A stretch of DNA of 64,000 nucleotides from Streptomyces sp. NBC_00162 (GTDB taxonomy: Bacteria; Actinomycetota; Actinomycetes; Streptomycetales; Streptomycetaceae). Position numbers and translations under genes: made by a program. The notes under the pieces were generated by a model. The model saw only the letters and a list, made by a program, of their open reading frames with translations, was not told the DNA's origin and searched no databases. The stretch spans positions 310,001 to 374,000 of the forward strand of contig NZ_CP102510.1 of assembly GCF_024611995.1 (NCBI RefSeq), written 5' to 3'. Positions 31,047 through 39,103 of the stretch are shown in pieces (the stretch's first letter is position 1; every line of letters starts with the position of its first letter).

Positions 31047-31451
31047 TCAGCCGCCGTCGACGTAGGAGCGTGCCGCGACCATCACGTCTTTGTAGCGTCC
31101 TTCTGCGATGACGGTGAGGGGTGCTTCGTCCTCGAGCTGCGGGTTCATGCCGATCATCCAGGCGCGGGCGGTGTAGAGGCTTTCGGCGTCCTGGATGAGT
31201 TGGAACACTTGCAGTGCAGCCCTCAGCCTGTCTTCGGCGTCCTGGCGTGGTGCGGAGTTGCCCAAGGCCCACTTTCCGACCTGCCGGGGATCGCTGATGT
31301 TGGTGATCCGGGCGGTCAGGCGCTGGCCGAGGTTGTCCTGCAGGAAGCGGGCGATGTCCGCGATGGACATGCGCACAGTGACGGCGTGGGCTCGCTCGGC
31401 ACTGGCGGTGCTCTTGGGGTCTGCAGAGGCGTTGGCGGCTGTGGTGGGCAT
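31047..31451 (-). CDS. Xre/MbcA/ParS-type antitoxin (DUF2384-like)
   Basis: 134 residues from ATG 31451 (GAGGGAG six to seven bases upstream). The N-terminal part is HTH-like (DIARFLQDNLGQRLTARITN). The C-terminal half carries the toxin-binding pattern of DUF2384: AWMIGMNPQLEDEAPLTVIA, then EGRYKDVMVAARSY. Such antitoxins neutralise RES-domain NAD-consuming toxins; a RES-like gene lies upstream on the same strand (32117-32797), 665 bases away rather than adjacent. Confidence 0.65.
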   Translation of the reverse strand: MPTTAANASADPKSTASAERAHAVTVRMSIADIARFLQDNLGQRLTARITNISDPRQVGKWALGNSAPRQDAEDRLRAALQVFQLIQDAESLYTARAWMIGMNPQLEDEAPLTVIAEGRYKDVMVAARSYVDGG

Positions 31452-31660
31452 GGGTGTCTCCCTCGTGTTCCGGCTACGCGCTGGCATTTGGGCCTTTGGT
31501 CGCGTGTCGGGCTACGGGTGCAGGATTCGTGCGCGGTCCGTTCCAGCTGCGGCACAGGTGAGGTGCGGAGTGGACGGTCGCGGGGCGTGGTGACGCTTCG
31601 AAGTGATGGTCCGGCGGGAAGCGTGACCGCTGCGGACTTTGGGGCGCGGAGCGCCTCGGT

Positions 31661-31849
31661 TCAGTGTCGCTGCGTACCGGTCGCGGAGGATCCGGTGCAG
31701 GGAGGACTGAGGGGGTGCAGGCGATGCAGGAGGACGGTGTCGTGCCTGCTGCTCGGCCGGCTGTTCACGGGCAGGTTCTGCTGGGGCATGAGGAGCTGCG
31801 GGGGCGGGGCGATGCTCCTGGGCCGTAAGAGGCAACCAGTTGCCATCAT
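31661..31849 (-). CDS. Possible 62-residue protein between toxin and antitoxin
   Basis: ATG 31849 is preceded by an excellent GAGGAGG ribosome binding site, and third codon positions are almost all G or C, unlike a chance frame. The product is rich in Pro, Ser, Leu and Arg (LLRPRSIAPPPQLLMPQQNL), without a known domain. It may be a leader peptide of the antitoxin transcript or a third component. Confidence 0.4.
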   Translation of the reverse strand: MMATGCLLRPRSIAPPPQLLMPQQNLPVNSRPSSRHDTVLLHRLHPLSPPCTGSSATGTQRH

Positions 31850-31916
31850 GAATCCTCCTCAGTAGTCGATGAGTTAAGACTACCCAGAATCCACCTCTAA
31901 CTCCACCACTTTTACT

Positions 31917-31931
31917 CATACTTGCAGTATG
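31917..31931. promoter_or_regulatory. Palindrome upstream of the antitoxin transcript
   Basis: CATACT-TGC-AGTATG is a perfect six-base inverted repeat in the only AT-rich patch nearby, about 68 bases upstream of ATG 31849 on the minus strand. It could be an autoregulatory operator for the Xre-type antitoxin. Confidence 0.4.
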
Positions 31932-32116
31932 TGATGCGCCGTCAAGACAGGGGAGCCGAGGGCGGTCTTGGGGTTTTGACCTGCGGCTTTCAGATCAACG
32001 AACGCAGTGGCCTGTCAGAAGGCAGGCCGGATTTTCCTTCGTTCGGGCTATGGCCTTCAGTGGCGTTTAGAGGGGGATCCGGGGAGGGCAGGAGCAGGAC
32101 TGGCTCGGGCTTCGCG

Positions 32117-32797
32117 TCAGCGGATGGTGAGTCCGTACTCGTCCGCGACGGTGCGCAGACCTTCGGTTTCAGGCCAGATGGGCTGCTGTTCGATTTCTTC
32201 CAGGTCGACGTCGCTGAAGATGGCCCAGCACTGGCGCATCCCGAAGCGGGATCGGTAGGCGATCCCGTGGATGAGGCGTCCCTGTTCGGGGGTGCGCTGG
32301 GTGATCGCCCAGGCTGCGATCTGCCGCGTGACCCTGCGGTTCGAACCGCGGATATGTTCTCGTGTCAGCGTGGGGACTCCCAGTACTGCCAGCTCGTCCT
32401 TGAGTTCTCGGGACAGGAGGCGCAGGGCTTCTTCGTCGTCGATGTTGAGGAACCGTGCTTCCTTCGTCGGCTGCAGGCGCACCAGGGTGTGGCGGGTGCG
32501 CCAGTCCCGGGGAAGGGTGCCGGGGGGCATGAAGTCGGGCGTCCGCCAGTCGTCGGCGATCAAGGCCTGCAATTCCGGGTCAACGCGGAAGGGCTCCAGC
32601 GCCTCGGCGAAGCATCCGTCGAGTTCAGAGGAGCAGTACAGGGTGCCATAGCCCACCAGGCTCCACAGGTTGCCGCCGGTGCGATTGTTGTCTGCCTTGC
32701 TGATCTTGTTGTACTTCAGGGGGTCTTTCGCTTTTCCTAAGTGCCACACACCGTGCTCGGGTGCCGCGATCAGCTGTAACCGGGTTGCCTCGTTCAC
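32117..32797 (-). CDS. RES-domain-like protein (probable toxin partner of the Xre antitoxin)
   Basis: 226 residues from GTG 32797, with GAGGAG six to seven bases upstream. RES-like pattern: HGVWHLGKAKDPLKYNK, then GGNLWSLVGYGTLYCSSELD and CFAEALEPFRVD (conserved Arg, Tyr and Glu region), with a C-terminal GIAYRSRFGMRQCWAIF matching the Y/S-rich end of RES domains. Known RES toxins degrade NAD+ and are held by Xre/DUF2384 antitoxins. The order toxin then antitoxin with a wide gap is unusual. Without a profile search the assignment is moderate. Confidence 0.6.
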   Translation of the reverse strand: MNEATRLQLIAAPEHGVWHLGKAKDPLKYNKISKADNNRTGGNLWSLVGYGTLYCSSELDGCFAEALEPFRVDPELQALIADDWRTPDFMPPGTLPRDWRTRHTLVRLQPTKEARFLNIDDEEALRLLSRELKDELAVLGVPTLTREHIRGSNRRVTRQIAAWAITQRTPEQGRLIHGIAYRSRFGMRQCWAIFSDVDLEEIEQQPIWPETEGLRTVADEYGLTIR

Positions 32798-33101: not shown

Positions 33102-36100
33102 TCACAGGTTCTCCAGATCCAGACTGAAGACCGCGACTCCCGCGTCTCCGGCCATGGTCAGGACGATGCCGCCGGACTGGTCACAGTGCTGCGCGGACAG
33201 GGTGTACACGGGGCTGCACGTGGCCAGTTGCAGGACGCAGCGTGATGTCTGAGCGTCCCAGAACCTGATCGTGCCGTCCCGGGAGGCGCTGGCGACCCAG
33301 TTCCGCGGCTCATCTGCCACGGTCGTCCAGGTGGCAAGGGCTTCGACAGCGTCTGCGTGTTCCTGCAGGGGCTCACCGAGCGGTTCGTAGGTGGTCAGGT
33401 CCCACAGTCGCACGCTGCCGTCATTTCCTCCGCTGGCGAGGAACGCGGGCAGCCGGCTGGGCCGGGCATTGACGGCTATGGCCTTGATGGGGCCCTGACG
33501 GCAGGACAGGACATGCTCGGGCGCGCCGTTCTGGCCGTCCCACACTTTCACCGTCCCGTCGAAACTGCTGGAGGCGAACCAGGTGCTGCTGCCACCGGAT
33601 GCTGCGGCCACGCTGGTGATTCGGAACTGGTGGCGCCAATGGTGCACCCTCAGCCCGTCGTTCAGGTCCCAGAGGCACACCCTGGAATCGTCGCCGCCGC
33701 TGATGACGATGCGATTCCCGGTATGGGTCATGGCAGCGGCGAGGGAGCGGACGGGTCGGGAGTGCCCCGCAAGGGGGACCGCTGTGCGGGCGTGGCCGGT
33801 ACTCAGCGGGTCCCAGGTGAGGATGCTGTGGTCGGATGCCGCCCACAGCAGCAGGGGCTGGCCGCCTGCGCCGGATGACGTCCAGACCAGGGCGGGTACC
33901 GCGGGTTCCTGGGCAGCGGACAGAGTGCTGAGGGTCGTTCCACTGCCTGTGTCCCACAGCTGTACCTTCGCGTTCGTGCGGCTGACGGCGACAGCAGGAA
34001 AGGCGTGCGAACGCGCGGTGAGTGCTGCGGATACCACGGCAGGGGCGGTCTCGGCGGCGGAGAGGGCGCGCCGGAAGGCCTCGGTGTCCCACACGCGTAC
34101 GGTGTTGTCCCGTGCCGTGGAGGCGAGGATGCCTGCCCCTGGGGCGGGCGGCAGGGTACACAGAGCGGTCACGGCATCGGTGTGGCCGGTGAGCCGGCCC
34201 CTCCACTGCTGGGCGTCGATGTCCCAGATGTCGATCGTGGACCCGGTGCCTGCTGCTGCCAGCAGGTTCGCGCCGTCGACGTGCACAGCCGCAAGAGCGA
34301 TGACAGGTTCACCTGTTCCGGCCAGAGCGGCCTTCGGCCCTGCGCTCACGTCCACCAGCATGATGGAGCCGTCGCTGTGCCCGCAGGCGATCAGACCGGG
34401 CACCGTCGTGTTCGTCAGCGACCTGACCGGGGATCCGATGGGGTATTCGTGCAGTAACTCATGGCTGGCGATGTCCCATACATGAAGCGTTCCGCCTGCC
34501 CCGACCAGCAACCTCCTACCGTCGGGATGGTCAGTGAGGGTGAGAGCGAACGCGGCGGGCTCAAGGGAGTGAGCGCTCATTTCGGCGAACTGCTGGGCCC
34601 CCGCCTGGTCCCGCCACAGCGTGACAGCCCCCTCGCCATTGACGGCGATGGACGTCAGTACGTGTGCCTCGTCGCGAAAGCCTGCGATGTCGGACGTCCA
34701 GACGTGCCCTTGCCCTTTCCTGTGATTGACCAGAACCCCCCGGTTCGTGTCCCACATCCGCACTGTGCCGTCTGTGCTGCCCGAGAGCAGTGCGCCGCCG
34801 CCCGCAGGGTGCGGCACGAAGCGGAGGCTGCGCACGGCTCCCTCATGGGCGGGAATCCGGTCTCCGACAGCGGTGCCGCTGCCCGCGTCGACGAGCTCGA
34901 TGCTGCCTGACTCGTTGCCCAAAGCCAGCAGCACACCGCCGCCGGGCCCATCGAGCGCGGTCAGGGACAGGCAGGTACGGCTCAGGGTGGCGAGCACGTT
35001 GGACGGGGGAGACCACTGCGACCAAAGGACCCTCAGCGGAGAGCCGGCGAAGGACCGGGCCTCAGGCGGCAGCTGCGCGTGCGGGGTGCCGGGATGACGT
35101 TGAGCGGTGTAGGCGAGGTGGAGGCTGGCACAGCGGGAGGCAGCATCGGCGGTCTTCACATAGGGCTCGACCGATGCCCAGGCGGTCAGCCACGGCCGCT
35201 CGTCATCGCCGGCGTGGGGGAGGGTGAGAAGGCCGCGGATTCCGTCTCCAGCGAGCCAGGGCAGCACAGCAGGCGGCACATGCCCGTCATCCAAGGTGCG
35301 GCCCAGTGCGGCATGATGCGCCAGATACCGACTCAGATAAGGGTGCGGCACACGCGCGGAGTGCGCCGCGACCAAGCGGGCCAGCTCCGCCGCGATCCGC
35401 GCATGAGCCTCCTGCTCGTCGGCGCCTGGATCTCTCGCCTGGTCGTCCGCTGCCATCCCTGAGCCCCCCGGCGTCCCCTGCGGCGACCGCGGATGCGGCC
35501 ACTGGCGAAGAATGGCGGCCAGCTGCTCATGCGCTGGCCGATACACCACACGATCGTCCTCGGTGTCATGGGTGAGATACCCCGCCAGCCGGCTTTCCAG
35601 CAGCCGGCGAATCTTCTCGTCCGCGTGATCGATACGCGCCTGCAACAGGCCCTCGGCCGCCGCCGGCCAGACCTGCGCCCAAGGGATCCCCCGCCCCAGC
35701 CCGAACGCGGTGACACGCAACAGCGCCACCGCCTCCTGAACGCTCACGCCGCTGTCGGCGACGTGCTCGAGATCCTCAGCGAACAAACCCACCGTGCCGC
35801 GGTCAAGCTGTGCAAACCACTGCGGGTCACGCAACAGGGCAAGCCCGTCACTGCGCCGCAACTGCTCTGCCGCCAGGCGTGCATCGAGGAACGAACGCCT
35901 GACATGAGGTGCCACAGCCTGGGCCGCCCGGGCGACCTCCGCCGCATCCCTGGCCCAGGGCGCCGCCGCCAGCAGAGCCGCGATGTATGCGGAGATATCC
36001 GCCTCCACCCCGTCCGCGTCAGTCCGCGCTTCCCGCGCACCGGGAAACGCGGTACGCAAGTCCTCCAGCAGCCCTGGCACGCTGGGGGCCGCCGACGCCA

Positions 36101-37610
36101 GCTGTGTGCCGGGCCTGCTGCTGCGCACAGCGAGCAGCAGCCGAAGCCCCCGCTGTCCCGCCCGCCGTCCAGGCGGCGGCGGGCCGGCTGCCTGCTGGGC
36201 GGGTACGGATGCTCTGACGGAATCCTGCGTCCCGCGGGTGTAGGGGGCCAAGGGCTCGAGGACGTCGCGGATGCAGGCCGCCGGATCCAGGGATTCGTCG
36301 ACACCGTCGATGACCACCGTGACCGTCTTCCCCCACCCGGCGGTGAAGAAATTACGCAGCCCTTCTTGCCACTGCCGCAGCGGATCGGCAGCCGGCCGTG
36401 AACGGTCCGGGGCACAGCCCAGGCGGCTGCCGATCGCCTCGATGAGACTCACCGGCCCACGATTGCGGGCGGACACCGCGACATGCACCGACCCCTCGGC
36501 GGGCACGCTGTCTGCGGGAGCCATGCGCACCGCCTGGGCATAGCGCGGGGACGCGCGGAAATCAGGATCGCTGAGTGTGACGGTGCGCGCCAGCAGGGCG
36601 GACTTTCCGCTCGCAGCGCTCCCGGTGACGATGAGTACTCCGGGGTCGTGGGAAGCGAAGCGGGCCAGCTGCCGGTTGAGGTCTTGGCGGCCGGAGAAGT
36701 ACCAACCCGGGTCATCGCTGCTGGCGCGGCCGCTGGCGCGGTCAAGCCAGTACTCCAGTTCGTCGTGTGTGGCCGCGACCTCCGCCCGGGCGGGAGCGAC
36801 CACCTGCGGCTTGGGCCGGTACCCGGGGTTGGGCAGAGTGAGCGCCACCGCCCCCAGCTTGGAGTGGTAGACCAGGCGCGGGCCTGGCAGCTGGAGATCG
36901 CGCTCTGCGTTGAGCCGGCCGGTGGCCTCCTCCAGGGCGCTCATGAACTCGCCGGCCGACAGATGGGAGCGCGTGATGCCTGCCGCATCCCGAAGCCAGC
37001 CGAACGCCATCTGCAAGATCGTGGCGAACTCGCGCCCCAGGACAGGCGAACGAGTTGCCGTCGTGGCCACGACGGTCATCGTGCCACTCGAGGTACGGGT
37101 CCGCGAAAGATCGCGGATGAAGGCCGTCAGCTCCACGTCGATGCCCCCGGACTCACAGGCATTGACGATGACCAGCACATGCCTGGCCTGTGAGTCGAGC
37201 GCTGCAATAACAAGTTCGTTCGTGGGCATGCCGGTTGCCTGCAGCCGGCTGTCGTCGGTGTCGGGCAGACGCAGGAAGTGCCTGCCCGAGGGGCTGACCG
37301 CGCCGTGCGAGGTGATGTACACGACCAAAGGTTCGTCTTCGGCGGCGTCCCGGATGCCGGACGTGTAGAGGAAGCGCTCAACGTCATGGCGCTCCGTAGG
37401 CGAACGCAAGACGGTCTGCACGAAACCCGCCTCAGCCTGCCACCACCCGGTCACCACCAGCAGCTGCTCCTCGATGGCCTTGGCGAACTCGGGATCTCCG
37501 TCCTCGACCGTCACCATGACCAGCGAGCCCGGCCTGACGGCCTCCGCGTCAGCCTTGGCCGCCTGCGGGCTGCCCCCGACCAGGCCGATGTGCCCGCGCT
37601 CCCCCTGCAT
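33102..37610 (-). CDS. Caspase-like protease / STAND NTPase / WD40 protein
   Basis: 1502 residues with three parts. (1) Caspase-like domain, residues 1-250: catalytic His102 in LVVYITSHGAVSPSGRHFL and Cys152 in VLVIVNACESGGID, the spacing expected for C14 peptidases. (2) NTPase, about 300-480: Walker A GSAASGKSALL (330-340), Walker B VTVVIDGVDES (430-440), then a helical region to about 850 as in NACHT-type STAND proteins. (3) At least ten WD40 units to the end (e.g. DGTVRMWDTNRG, DNTVRVWDTEAF, DDSRVCLWDLNDG, DGTIRFWDAQT). Expected logic: WD40 senses, STAND oligomerises, caspase cleaves. ATG 37610 is only 20 bases from the divergent lipase start. Confidence 0.85.
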   Translation of the reverse strand: MQGERGHIGLVGGSPQAAKADAEAVRPGSLVMVTVEDGDPEFAKAIEEQLLVVTGWWQAEAGFVQTVLRSPTERHDVERFLYTSGIRDAAEDEPLVVYITSHGAVSPSGRHFLRLPDTDDSRLQATGMPTNELVIAALDSQARHVLVIVNACESGGIDVELTAFIRDLSRTRTSSGTMTVVATTATRSPVLGREFATILQMAFGWLRDAAGITRSHLSAGEFMSALEEATGRLNAERDLQLPGPRLVYHSKLGAVALTLPNPGYRPKPQVVAPARAEVAATHDELEYWLDRASGRASSDDPGWYFSGRQDLNRQLARFASHDPGVLIVTGSAASGKSALLARTVTLSDPDFRASPRYAQAVRMAPADSVPAEGSVHVAVSARNRGPVSLIEAIGSRLGCAPDRSRPAADPLRQWQEGLRNFFTAGWGKTVTVVIDGVDESLDPAACIRDVLEPLAPYTRGTQDSVRASVPAQQAAGPPPPGRRAGQRGLRLLLAVRSSRPGTQLASAAPSVPGLLEDLRTAFPGAREARTDADGVEADISAYIAALLAAAPWARDAAEVARAAQAVAPHVRRSFLDARLAAEQLRRSDGLALLRDPQWFAQLDRGTVGLFAEDLEHVADSGVSVQEAVALLRVTAFGLGRGIPWAQVWPAAAEGLLQARIDHADEKIRRLLESRLAGYLTHDTEDDRVVYRPAHEQLAAILRQWPHPRSPQGTPGGSGMAADDQARDPGADEQEAHARIAAELARLVAAHSARVPHPYLSRYLAHHAALGRTLDDGHVPPAVLPWLAGDGIRGLLTLPHAGDDERPWLTAWASVEPYVKTADAASRCASLHLAYTAQRHPGTPHAQLPPEARSFAGSPLRVLWSQWSPPSNVLATLSRTCLSLTALDGPGGGVLLALGNESGSIELVDAGSGTAVGDRIPAHEGAVRSLRFVPHPAGGGALLSGSTDGTVRMWDTNRGVLVNHRKGQGHVWTSDIAGFRDEAHVLTSIAVNGEGAVTLWRDQAGAQQFAEMSAHSLEPAAFALTLTDHPDGRRLLVGAGGTLHVWDIASHELLHEYPIGSPVRSLTNTTVPGLIACGHSDGSIMLVDVSAGPKAALAGTGEPVIALAAVHVDGANLLAAAGTGSTIDIWDIDAQQWRGRLTGHTDAVTALCTLPPAPGAGILASTARDNTVRVWDTEAFRRALSAAETAPAVVSAALTARSHAFPAVAVSRTNAKVQLWDTGSGTTLSTLSAAQEPAVPALVWTSSGAGGQPLLLWAASDHSILTWDPLSTGHARTAVPLAGHSRPVRSLAAAMTHTGNRIVISGGDDSRVCLWDLNDGLRVHHWRHQFRITSVAAASGGSSTWFASSSFDGTVKVWDGQNGAPEHVLSCRQGPIKAIAVNARPSRLPAFLASGGNDGSVRLWDLTTYEPLGEPLQEHADAVEALATWTTVADEPRNWVASASRDGTIRFWDAQTSRCVLQLATCSPVYTLSAQHCDQSGGIVLTMAGDAGVAVFSLDLENL

Positions 37611-37630
37611 TTTCCCTATTGTTCACAGCC

Positions 37631-39103
37631 ATGAATCACCGCACGCCGGAACCCGAGAAAAACGCCGCGTCACTCCTCACCGCGGACATCACCCAGGACG
37701 CCGTCGTCATCGTTCCCGGCATCATGGGCAGCGAGCTCTATGACACCACCAGGCAAAAAACCATCTGGGGATTATCCGGTGTTGCCTGGCTCCTCAAGGC
37801 GTGGACACAGCCCAAAGGCCTGGAGCCCCTGCGACTGACCGAGGACGAGCTGGAAGGCAAGACCGGCCGCATCACAGCCACCCAGCTCATGCGCCACTCT
37901 TCATGGACGCCTTACCTCCAGGGTCTGGAGCCCTACACCAGCCTCATCAACACCGTCCGCGACTGCGTCGCCCACCCCGCGGCAATCATGCAATTCCCCT
38001 ACGACTGGCGCCTGCCCGTCGCCACCAACGGCCGGCTCCTGGCCGATGCCGCCCGCCGACACCTGACCACCTGGCGCCAGCACGACGCCCACGATGCCGC
38101 CCGCCGCCACCGTGTCGACGAGCGGCCCGCACGCCTCGTCTTCGTCGCCCACTCCATGGGCGGCCTCGTCACCCGAGCCGCCCTCGACCCCGCTCACGAC
38201 AGAGACCTCGCCCAGGACACCCGAGCCGTCCTCACCCTCGGCACTCCGTTCTACGGCGCCGTGAAGGCCACCGCCATCCTCAACACCGGGCGCGGCACCC
38301 CCGTCCCCCTCCCTCACCGGCAGCTGCAGTCCATCTCCGCCACCATGCCGGGCCTGCACGACCTCCTGCCCCAGTACACCTGCCTCATTGACGGCGACCA
38401 CATCCGCCACCTCACTCCCCAAGACGTGGCCGCCATCGGCGGAAACGCCGACCTCGCCCGCGACGCAGCAGACTCCCACCGCCGACAAGCCCACCTGGCC
38501 CTGCCCGCCCACCGAGCCGTCGTGGGCACCCAGCAGAGCACCCTGCAGAGCCTGACGATCCACGCCGGGGTCGTCGAAGCCCATCACCACGGAGCTCGCC
38601 AGCACACCAACGGCGACTTCATCCGTGACCCGCGCGGGCGCCTGAAGTTCTACGACGTCAAGGGCGACGGAACCGTCTACAAGGAGTCAGCGGCCGTCGG
38701 CCCGGCCATCACGCCCCTGCCCCTCCAGCACGGAGCCGTCGCCTCCGACCACATCGCGCTGAAAGCCGTCGCGGAAATCCTGCGCGATGACGAGCACCTC
38801 GGCCCGCCCCAGGGGACCCCTGGATGCGGCCTGGACGTCCCCGACCTCGTTGAGGTCGGCAACCCCTGGACCCTCACGCTCAGCGGCGTGGACTCCCTGG
38901 GCGGCGTCCGGTGCGAAGTCACCGACCTGAGCACGGGATCCACCCAAAGGCTCCGCCTGGGTTGGGGCGACGGCGACATCGTGGCTCGAGCCACGGCCTA
39001 CACACCGGGCCTGTACCGCGTGACCGTGCGCACCCTAGACGACCTCACCGTCACCCAGCTCGTCCTGGCCGCAGAAGCGGAGCCGAAACGAGAGACGGCC
39101 TGA
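37631..39103 (+). CDS. LCAT/PGAP1-type alpha/beta-hydrolase (lipase)
   Basis: 490 residues. Oxyanion region VVIVPGIMGSELYD near 27-40; nucleophile elbow VFVAHSMGGLVTRA with Ser175; candidate catalytic His in VASDHIALKAV. The core is like lecithin:cholesterol acyltransferase/PGAP1 lipases. The last 100 residues form a beta-rich domain (LTLSGVDSLGGVRCEVTDLS; TPGLYRVTVRTLDDLT) reminiscent of a CARF-free Ig-like sensor. No signal peptide, so it probably acts inside the cell on membrane lipids. It is divergent from the caspase-STAND gene. The TTG at 37619 is an alternative start. TTA codon at 37772. Confidence 0.75.
   Translation: MNHRTPEPEKNAASLLTADITQDAVVIVPGIMGSELYDTTRQKTIWGLSGVAWLLKAWTQPKGLEPLRLTEDELEGKTGRITATQLMRHSSWTPYLQGLEPYTSLINTVRDCVAHPAAIMQFPYDWRLPVATNGRLLADAARRHLTTWRQHDAHDAARRHRVDERPARLVFVAHSMGGLVTRAALDPAHDRDLAQDTRAVLTLGTPFYGAVKATAILNTGRGTPVPLPHRQLQSISATMPGLHDLLPQYTCLIDGDHIRHLTPQDVAAIGGNADLARDAADSHRRQAHLALPAHRAVVGTQQSTLQSLTIHAGVVEAHHHGARQHTNGDFIRDPRGRLKFYDVKGDGTVYKESAAVGPAITPLPLQHGAVASDHIALKAVAEILRDDEHLGPPQGTPGCGLDVPDLVEVGNPWTLTLSGVDSLGGVRCEVTDLSTGSTQRLRLGWGDGDIVARATAYTPGLYRVTVRTLDDLTVTQLVLAAEAEPKRETA

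What the first reader, a model, noticed from the sequence alone, without database searches (positions are those of the whole stretch)
33102..39103. Caspase-STAND-WD40 protein divergent from an LCAT/PGAP1 lipase: candidate two-arm suicide defence module
Seen: His102/Cys152 caspase pair, STAND NTPase with Walker A and B, at least ten WD40 repeats in one chain, and 20 bases away on the other strand an intracellular-type lipase with a Ser175 elbow and a C-terminal beta domain. Known: STAND NTPases with effector domains abort phage infection (Avs), and bacterial caspases and phospholipases are effectors in other defence systems. Inferred: WD40 sensing triggers the caspase, which may activate the lipase to break the membrane. 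This pairing is not a named system that I know.
Basis: partly seen in the sequence, partly recalled or inferred. Interest (0 to 1): 0.88.

Follow-up and report, generated by a model that had tools for sequence, protein, structure and literature searches.

The report
Bacterial apoptosome-like four-gene suicide cassette
A Streptomyces replicon carries a protein built like the animal cell-death apparatus (caspase, switch ATPase, ring-shaped sensor), found together with a predicted membrane-cutting enzyme and a predicted NAD-destroying toxin with its antidote, which suggests a built-in suicide circuit that can now be tested.

Summary
The window encodes a caspase (His102/Cys152), a STAND NTPase and about 14 WD40 blades in one chain. 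Starting 20 bp away on the other strand is a phospholipase-like protein with triad Ser175/Asp346/His367; its closest fold is lysosomal phospholipase A2, with an Ig/filamin-like C-terminal domain. Two further genes belong to it: a RES toxin (best fold MbcT) and an MbcA-like antitoxin. In 199 sampled Streptomyces genomes the antitoxin was found at 11 places and the RES protein at 11, in the same 11 genomes, always in this cassette. Five more RES-positive genomes and four more distant plasmid copies show all parts in the same order. More widely, 44 of 49 examined caspase-STAND loci have an adjacent alpha/beta-hydrolase gene (22 of this lipase type, 22 of a smaller type). Four relatives sit beside the known defence gene mkoA. 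Kaur et al. 2020 already noted that caspases of VMAP systems always neighbour an alpha/beta-hydrolase, so the pairing principle is known. The STAND-WD40 setting, the LPLA2-like lipase and the linked RES/MbcA toxin-antitoxin are, as far as I found, new. Mechanism is inferred.

The parts
37631..39103 (+). LPLA2/LCAT-like phospholipase, 490 aa; triad Ser175-Asp346-His367; alpha/beta-hydrolase core about residues 20-387
38816..39079 (+). C-terminal Ig/filamin-like beta-sandwich of the lipase (residues 396-483), behind a lower-confidence linker around 390-399
33102..37610 (-). caspase-STAND-WD40 protein, 1502 aa
36825..37532 (-). caspase domain (residues 27-262), His102/Cys152
35484..36758 (-). STAND NTPase (residues 285-709), Walker A 330-337, Walker B 432-439
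33105..35003 (-). WD40 region (residues 870-1502), about 14 blades
   Evidence: encoded as a separate gene in several relatives
37611..37630 (.). 20-bp divergent start-to-start spacer with motif TCCCTATTGTTCAC, read as overlapping, near-leaderless divergent promoters (inference)
   Evidence: CCCTATTSTTC within one mismatch in 10 of 16 cassette loci by eye; diverged in 5 and not seen in 1
32117..32797 (-). RES-domain toxin, 226 aa, MbcT fold (predicted NAD+ phosphorylase)
31047..31451 (-). MbcA-like (Xre/ParS-type) antitoxin, 134 aa
   Evidence: only PDB hit of the family profile is 6fkg_C MbcA, E 1.7e-4; no convincing Pfam match; the homologue is annotated 'XRE family transcriptional regulator' on NZ_CP109380; 11 of 11 places found are in the cassette
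31452..32116 (-). apparently non-coding leader between RES and antitoxin (207-740 bp between called genes in 10 loci) with a conserved promoter-like motif TGGAGT...GGGTAG (about 31877-31907) and a hairpin
   Evidence: DNA alignment of 10 loci, gap lengths; no Rfam match

Best explanation
A conserved four-gene, plasmid- and chromosome-borne cell-suicide (immune) cassette of Streptomyces, organised like an apoptosome. Step 1 (inferred): the WD40 propellers, fused or encoded as a separate gene, bind an infection cue or hold the STAND switch off. Step 2 (inferred from STAND biology, recalled): ATP-dependent oligomerisation of the STAND domain crowds and activates the N-terminal caspase. Step 3 (inferred): the caspase acts on cassette partners, either by clipping the MbcA-like antitoxin and freeing the RES enzyme to consume NAD+, or by clipping or recruiting the phospholipase, which then attacks the membrane. 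The cell dies or stops before the invader spreads. Shown here: the parts, the intact catalytic residues of caspase, STAND and lipase, predicted folds of lipase and RES, and consistent co-occurrence and order. Not shown: trigger, substrate, lipid and NAD activities, and phage protection.
For: Linkage: antitoxin 11 places and RES 11 places in 199 genomes, the same 11 genomes, all in the cassette (against 16, 32, 76; in G076 the parts lie on two contigs, read as one split cassette); 5 of 5 further RES-positive genomes; 4 of 4 distant plasmid copies opened (44-48% RES identity). In protein-database lists, 26 of 53 RES contig lengths recur among the caspase or lipase contigs (lists truncated). Catalytic residues. 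Folds: lipase LPLA2 (69), RES MbcT (113); antitoxin by sequence MbcA (80). General rule: 44 of 49 examined caspase-STAND loci have an adjacent alpha/beta-hydrolase, by two hydrolase types. Part swapping: lipase beside CHAT protease (L040/L075); lipase fused to an AAA_16/STAND-like protein with EAD1-trypsin genes (L058/L061); a caspase-STAND without hydrolase fused to GT4-conflict (L090). Defence context: mkoA beside 4 relatives, E 1e-185 or better. Lipase and caspase-STAND distances correlate over 37 pairs, Spearman 0.452, 0 of 2000 permutations as high.
Against: No activity, cleavage or phage test. PADLOC gives no hit for the window proteins; the own genome's second caspase-STAND protein hits its 'caspase' model only weakly (E 3.1e-5). 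RES active site only partly conserved by eye: residue 44 is R 22, A 6, Q 3, L 1 (the window) of 32 rows, and residue 19 is R in 29 and H in 3 including the window, so NAD+ phosphorolysis by this copy is uncertain. The antitoxin is apart from and downstream of the toxin, unlike canonical pairs. 9 of 53 lipase loci have no protease or STAND partner: five truncated or degenerate (L062, L074, L082, L103, L109), two near contig ends (L063, L099), one that looks like loss of the caspase gene (L100), one unexplained (L104). 4 of 49 caspase-STAND loci have no adjacent hydrolase. No cleavage site was identified in lipase or antitoxin. The genome searches score a limited number of candidates per genome, so counts are what was found.
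Confidence: 0.6

Rival explanations
1. The RES/MbcA pair is a plasmid-addiction toxin-antitoxin that hitch-hikes with an independent caspase-STAND/lipase immune pair; the two share a replicon and an operon neighbourhood but not a pathway.
For: RES genes are common on plasmids: 47 PLSDB records match the RES protein, including non-Streptomyces ones; the one opened (Arthrobacter) has an antitoxin homologue and the toxin side by side. The caspase-STAND/hydrolase pair exists widely without RES.
Against: In what was opened, this RES clade was not found without the caspase-STAND/lipase genes (11 of 11, 5 of 5, 4 of 4), with fixed order and strand, on chromosome-sized contigs as well as plasmids. The antitoxin is separated from the toxin by a leader with a conserved motif, unlike an ordinary addiction pair.
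Confidence: 0.25
2. The caspase mainly activates itself (or the STAND assembly) and the hydrolase is an independent second effector recruited by protein contact, not a substrate.
For: Kaur et al. propose auto-proteolysis for EACC1 caspases (passages). The hydrolase type is swapped (LCAT-like or about 290 aa) while the caspase stays, so no shared cleavage site is evident. Some lipases are fused to an NTPase.
Against: The separate gene and a lower-confidence linker in the lipase would suit cleavage; nothing excludes it.
Confidence: 0.3
3. A developmental or stress-response programmed death or signalling system of multicellular actinobacteria, not phage defence.
For: Outside Streptomyces the lipase-type module was seen in one other family only (L128). 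RES toxins studied so far act in persistence and stress (PMC11535050, passages).
Against: Patchy distribution (11 of 199 genomes), plasmid copies and mkoA beside relatives fit mobile defence better than a core developmental role.
Confidence: 0.2

Closest known systems
Caspase + alpha/beta-hydrolase pairs of VMAP (vWA-MoxR) ternary systems (Kaur et al. 2020, PMC7159879)
   Same: A caspase-bearing component always next to an alpha/beta-hydrolase gene; multicellular actinobacteria. One VMAP locus here (L155) shows it: caspase GHG/DAC motifs by eye and a weak profile hit, with a hydrolase next door.
   Different: No VMAP, vWA or MoxR domain among the window ORFs scanned near the pair. The caspase is fused to STAND-WD40. 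The window lipase is LPLA2/LCAT-like, whereas the two VMAP hydrolases seen match the small-hydrolase profile weakly (33 and 53 bits). RES/MbcA is added.
EACC1-caspase two-gene systems (Kaur et al. 2020)
   Same: Caspase of the EACC1-associated type at the N-terminus, variable C-terminal domains that include STAND NTPases.
   Different: No EACC1 membrane gene beside it; a lipase and RES/antitoxin instead.
MbcT-MbcA and other RES-Xre toxin-antitoxin pairs
   Same: Toxin best fold 6fkg_B MbcT, antitoxin profile hits 6fkg_C MbcA.
   Different: Toxin precedes the antitoxin with a gap of 207-740 bp between called genes, and both are tied to a caspase-STAND-WD40/lipase unit. The published statement that no RES pair had been implicated in immunity is in PMC11535050 (passages).
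Animal apoptosome (APAF-1) and caspase; bacterial Avs/NLR-like STAND defence (recalled)
   Same: STAND switch with WD40 or repeat sensor driving an effector; works like.
   Different: The caspase is in cis with the STAND, the candidate effectors are a lipase and an NAD enzyme; no Avs profile match.
Lysosomal phospholipase A2 / LCAT; T6SS phospholipase Tle4
   Different: No secretion context seen; extra C-terminal Ig-like domain; genetic link to caspase-STAND.

Membership tests
Caspase superfamily (C14) | His/Cys dyad | tested here: met
   50 of 50; 20 of 20 cassette loci
Caspase superfamily (C14) | Curated profile match | tested here: inconclusive
   NF047832 E 1.8e-13 but 50 bits against cut-off 140; PF00656 did not list the window locus
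STAND NTPase | Walker A and B, family-wide | tested here: met
   50 of 50
VMAP ternary system | VMAP, vWA and MoxR genes | tested here: not met
   none among the 7 ORFs scanned between 29731 and 40487 (gene A's table shows its best 25 of 45 families); the rest of the window was not scanned
VMAP ternary system | Caspase accompanied by alpha/beta-hydrolase gene | tested here: met
EACC1 two-gene system | Adjacent EACC1 single-TM gene | tested here: not met
   immediate neighbours are the lipase and RES
RES-Xre / MbcTA toxin-antitoxin | RES fold of toxin | tested here: met
RES-Xre / MbcTA toxin-antitoxin | Homologous antitoxin nearby | tested here: met
   36% and 47% identical to proteins beside RES genes of two other plasmids
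RES-Xre / MbcTA toxin-antitoxin | Antitoxin gene directly upstream, overlapping or abutting the toxin | tested here: not met
   downstream, with a gap, in all 10 loci aligned
RES-Xre / MbcTA toxin-antitoxin | Active-site residues (NatT R23, R82, Y93, S184, N193) | tested here: inconclusive
   no residue-level superposition; Tyr54, Glu65, Ser183 invariant in 32 rows, residue 44 variable
RES-Xre / MbcTA toxin-antitoxin | NAD+ phosphorolysis, neutralised by antitoxin | not testable with these tools
   needs biochemistry
LPLA2/LCAT phospholipase | Ser-Asp-His triad and fold | tested here: met
LPLA2/LCAT phospholipase | Phospholipase activity | not testable with these tools
   needs biochemistry
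Avs and other catalogued defence systems | PADLOC profile match of the window proteins | tested here: not met
   0 families for 4 proteins and for RES and the 134-aa antitoxin

The most novel reading that the evidence does not exclude
A bacterial apoptosome whose caspase triggers a toxin-antitoxin: the WD40-STAND switch activates the caspase, which destroys the MbcA-like antitoxin and so unleashes a RES NAD+-consuming enzyme, while a phospholipase is fired in parallel. This would be the first protease-gated RES toxin-antitoxin and the first RES pair with an immune role that I know of.
Probability: 0.27. Interest if true: 0.92.

Novelty: new variant of a known kind. Interest (0 to 1): 0.8.

Why it matters
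It supplies a compact system in which candidate substrates of a bacterial caspase-STAND protein are genetically fixed beside it, so an apoptosome-to-effector pathway can be tested in one cassette. It gives RES toxin-antitoxins, whose physiological role was called unresolved and not tied to immunity (PMC11535050, passages), a concrete candidate immune role. It also extends the caspase/alpha-beta-hydrolase rule of Kaur et al. from VMAP systems to stand-alone caspase-STAND genes, with two hydrolase classes.

Tried and rejected
Considered and rejected: chance adjacency of caspase-STAND and lipase (44 of 49 loci have an adjacent hydrolase seen from the caspase side). A two-gene-only module (RES and antitoxin accompany every window-type locus examined). 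Membership in VMAP or EACC1 systems (defining neighbours absent nearby). Phage origin (no match for the lipase in the phage collection). A known RNA family in the RES-antitoxin gap (no Rfam match). A missed protein gene in that gap (low, non-coding-like conservation; not tested formally).

Led nowhere: PDB sequence search with the caspase domain (0 hits) and with the RES profile (0 hits at E 1; only unrelated CheY chains at E 10). The phylum-wide lipase profile search found 3 of 246 genomes, all of the window's own genus. The class-wide search with A2 was swamped by WD40 matches. Scanning 20 VMAP loci for the same hydrolases gave 2 weak relatives. Literature searches (open-access PMC full text only): no listed title describes this cassette; some searches listed only part of their hits (7 of 8, 20 of 53, 12 of 111, 8 of 10). 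The promoter/terminator scan was at chance level. No structure was predicted for the caspase-STAND protein; the last structure job went to RES instead.

Correction: an earlier count said 55 lipase places; the table has 54 rows, which I count as 53 loci (two rows of G127 are one broken gene). That entry's 'about 33 of 41' is superseded by the recount. An earlier count gave the leader as 0.35-0.74 kb; one search gives 207-740 bp (L045, whose antitoxin was called with a long N-terminal extension, is the 207).
Full report

IS THE PAIR REAL. Lipase side: 42 of 199 sampled genomes of the genus carry a lipase homologue at E 1e-10 or better, 54 rows, which I count as 53 loci (at most 7 candidates per genome are scored, so this is what was found). 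All 53 were looked at. 38 lie beside a caspase-STAND gene, in divergent, co-directional-upstream or co-directional-downstream order: 37 by profile (in L073 the caspase profile matches but the STAND profile does not, Pfam gives AAA_16/NACHT) and the contig-edge locus L046 by tblastn. 2 lie beside a CHAT protease (L040, on this genome's own chromosome, and L075). 2 are fused to an AAA_16/STAND-like protein with EAD1-trypsin and EAD1 genes (L058, L061). 2 lie beside a large protein without a recognised domain (L107 scanned with Pfam; L108 by my profiles only). 9 have no such partner: L062, L074, L082, L103 and L109 are truncated or degenerate, L063 and L099 are near contig ends, L100 looks like loss of the caspase gene, and L104 is unexplained.

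Caspase side: the caspase-STAND part (720 aa) finds 42 of 199 genomes at E 1e-10, 63 rows, which I merge to 52 loci (at most 5 candidates per genome scored). 49 were examined; three were not fetched (a second copy in G090 read as a terminal duplicate, and fragments in G076 C80 and G120). 22 have an LCAT-type lipase next door. 22 have a different alpha/beta-hydrolase of about 290 aa (VHGIxQ, AHSLGS, Asp and His motifs); this includes L080 and L092, found by tblastn after the gene caller missed them, and L091, whose hydrolase is split by a frameshift. 1 is a remnant of both genes (L082). 4 have no adjacent hydrolase (L090, L111, L113, L115). L090 instead carries a fused GT4-conflict effector domain, and in L115 a hydrolase lies three genes away. 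A machine tally over 67 called caspase-STAND genes, partly sampled from the lipase side and including loci outside the genus, gives 61 with an adjacent hydrolase. Pairwise distances of lipase and caspase-STAND correlate over 37 pairs (Spearman 0.452, 0 of 2000 permutations as high). The own chromosome carries a second lipase/caspase-STAND operon (L039). Outside the genus, of the five caspase-STAND loci with both profiles (L124-L128), three have the small hydrolase, one (L128) the LCAT type and one (L124) none.

THE CASSETTE IS LARGER. The gene after the WD40 end, 32797..32117 (-), is a RES-domain protein (PF08808, E 1.1e-8), and the next, 31451..31047 (-), is a small Xre/ParS-type protein. Both recur beside gene A in the 10 window-type loci compared. 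Searched independently in the same 199 genomes, the small protein was found at exactly 11 places and the RES protein at exactly 11 (E 1e-6; a few genomes had more first-look candidates than were scored). The genomes are the same 11, and all are those with the divergent LCAT-lipase/caspase-STAND locus (in G076 the parts lie on contigs C50 and C80, read as one split cassette). An order-level search with the RES profile (147 genomes) found 7 places, all in the same genus. Two were already known and the five new ones all carry lipase, caspase, STAND, WD40, RES and antitoxin in the same order. Four more distant plasmid copies (RES 44-48% identical) were opened and all four have the same order; of the 47 plasmid records matching RES, 7 were opened in all. 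Two ordinary RES genes opened as outgroups (34% and 28%) have an antitoxin homologue but no caspase-STAND match in the 7-11 kb opened. In the protein-database lists 26 of 53 RES contig lengths recur among caspase or lipase contigs (lists truncated, so a lower bound). Some of the sampled genomes and plasmid records are probably the same strains (equal contig lengths), so these counts must not be added.

RELATIVES POINT TO DEFENCE. In four relatives of a different subtype (L052, L053, L055, L057) the gene next to the caspase-STAND gene is mkoA (PADLOC, E 1e-185 or better; that this is the Mokosh system is recalled). In four others (L064, L066, L068, L102) it is a small gene; in the three scanned (L064, L066, L068) it matches CHAT/SAVED-CHAT. 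The window proteins themselves match no PADLOC model; the own genome's second caspase-STAND protein hits the PADLOC 'caspase' model weakly (E 3.1e-5).

HOW IT MOST LIKELY WORKS. By analogy with STAND proteins (recalled), ligand sensing by the WD40 propellers lets the STAND domain assemble and activates the caspase in cis. The fixed neighbours are then the best candidates for what it controls: the antitoxin (its loss would free the RES enzyme to consume NAD+) and the phospholipase (membrane damage). Which of these is cut, or whether the lipase is merely recruited, is open. Against RES activity in this copy: residue 44, before Trp45, is R in 22, A in 6, Q in 3 and L (the window) in 1 of 32 rows, and residue 19 is R in 29 and H in 3 including the window. 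No structural mapping of the active site was done.

WHAT IS KNOWN. Kaur et al. 2020 (PMC7159879; passages read) report that whenever a VMAP component has a caspase, a neighbouring gene encodes an alpha/beta-hydrolase, and describe EACC1-caspase systems whose variable C-termini include STAND NTPases; word counts over the main text give 0 for 'lipase' and 'RES domain'. One VMAP locus here (L155) shows the caspase/hydrolase pair; its hydrolase, and that of L141, is a weak relative of the small type (33 and 53 bits), not of the window lipase. PMC8195603 (passages) links caspases, AP-ATPases and lipid-hydrolysing alpha/beta-hydrolases through effector-associated domains. [quoted passage not shown] My searches of the open-access library (listings, some partial) showed no title describing the present cassette; most subscription papers and preprints are not held there.

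VERDICT. Observation confirmed. New variant of a known kind, of high interest because it ties a caspase-STAND-WD40 protein to a phospholipase and an MbcTA-like toxin-antitoxin in one testable cassette.

Noticed in passing
L052:804-4535, L053:13624-17001, L055:526-4218, L057:13913-17001: Homologues of MkoA sit next to (L052 6 bp apart, the others overlapping in the gene calls, same strand) the caspase-STAND gene of lipase/caspase-STAND operons: a possible composite defence operon.
   Followed up: partly
L058:3081-7535 and L061:5112-9392 with neighbours: The same lipase is fused to an AAA_16/STAND-like NTPase and stands next to EAD1-trypsin and EAD1 genes: protease, NTPase and lipase reshuffled.
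   Followed up: partly
L040:5885-9576 (own chromosome) and L075: Lipase directly behind a CHAT-domain protease gene, without STAND.
   Followed up: partly
L039:3206-9596 (own chromosome, G000:C1 about 6.06 Mb): A second, diverged lipase/caspase-STAND operon in the same genome, co-directional and overlapping by 8 bases.
   Followed up: partly
L090:7300-10689: Caspase-STAND protein without hydrolase partner but fused to a GT4-conflict glycosyltransferase domain (PF20706, E 2e-148).
   Followed up: partly
L064, L066, L068, L102, gene after the caspase-STAND gene: A conserved gene of about 208-246 aa follows the caspase-STAND gene; in the three scanned (L064, L066, L068) it matches CHAT/SAVED-CHAT.
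   Followed up: partly
window 31452-32116 and equivalents in 9 loci: Apparently untranslated stretch between RES and antitoxin with a TGGAGT...GGGTAG motif and a short hairpin; could be a regulated leader.
   Followed up: partly
L082 (G140:C2 about 4.324 Mb): Remnant: a STAND fragment next to a lipase C-terminal fragment.
   Followed up: no
L100, L074: Lipase (L100) or broken lipase (L074) beside the same flanking genes that surround a lipase/caspase-STAND operon in L039, L066 and L068, but with no caspase-STAND gene: apparent loss.
   Followed up: no
L107:8208-14707, L108:8440-15098: Lipase overlapping by 4 bases a 1688-1741 aa protein; the L107 protein has no convincing Pfam domain, the L108 one was not scanned with Pfam: possible further sensor/effector type.
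   Followed up: no
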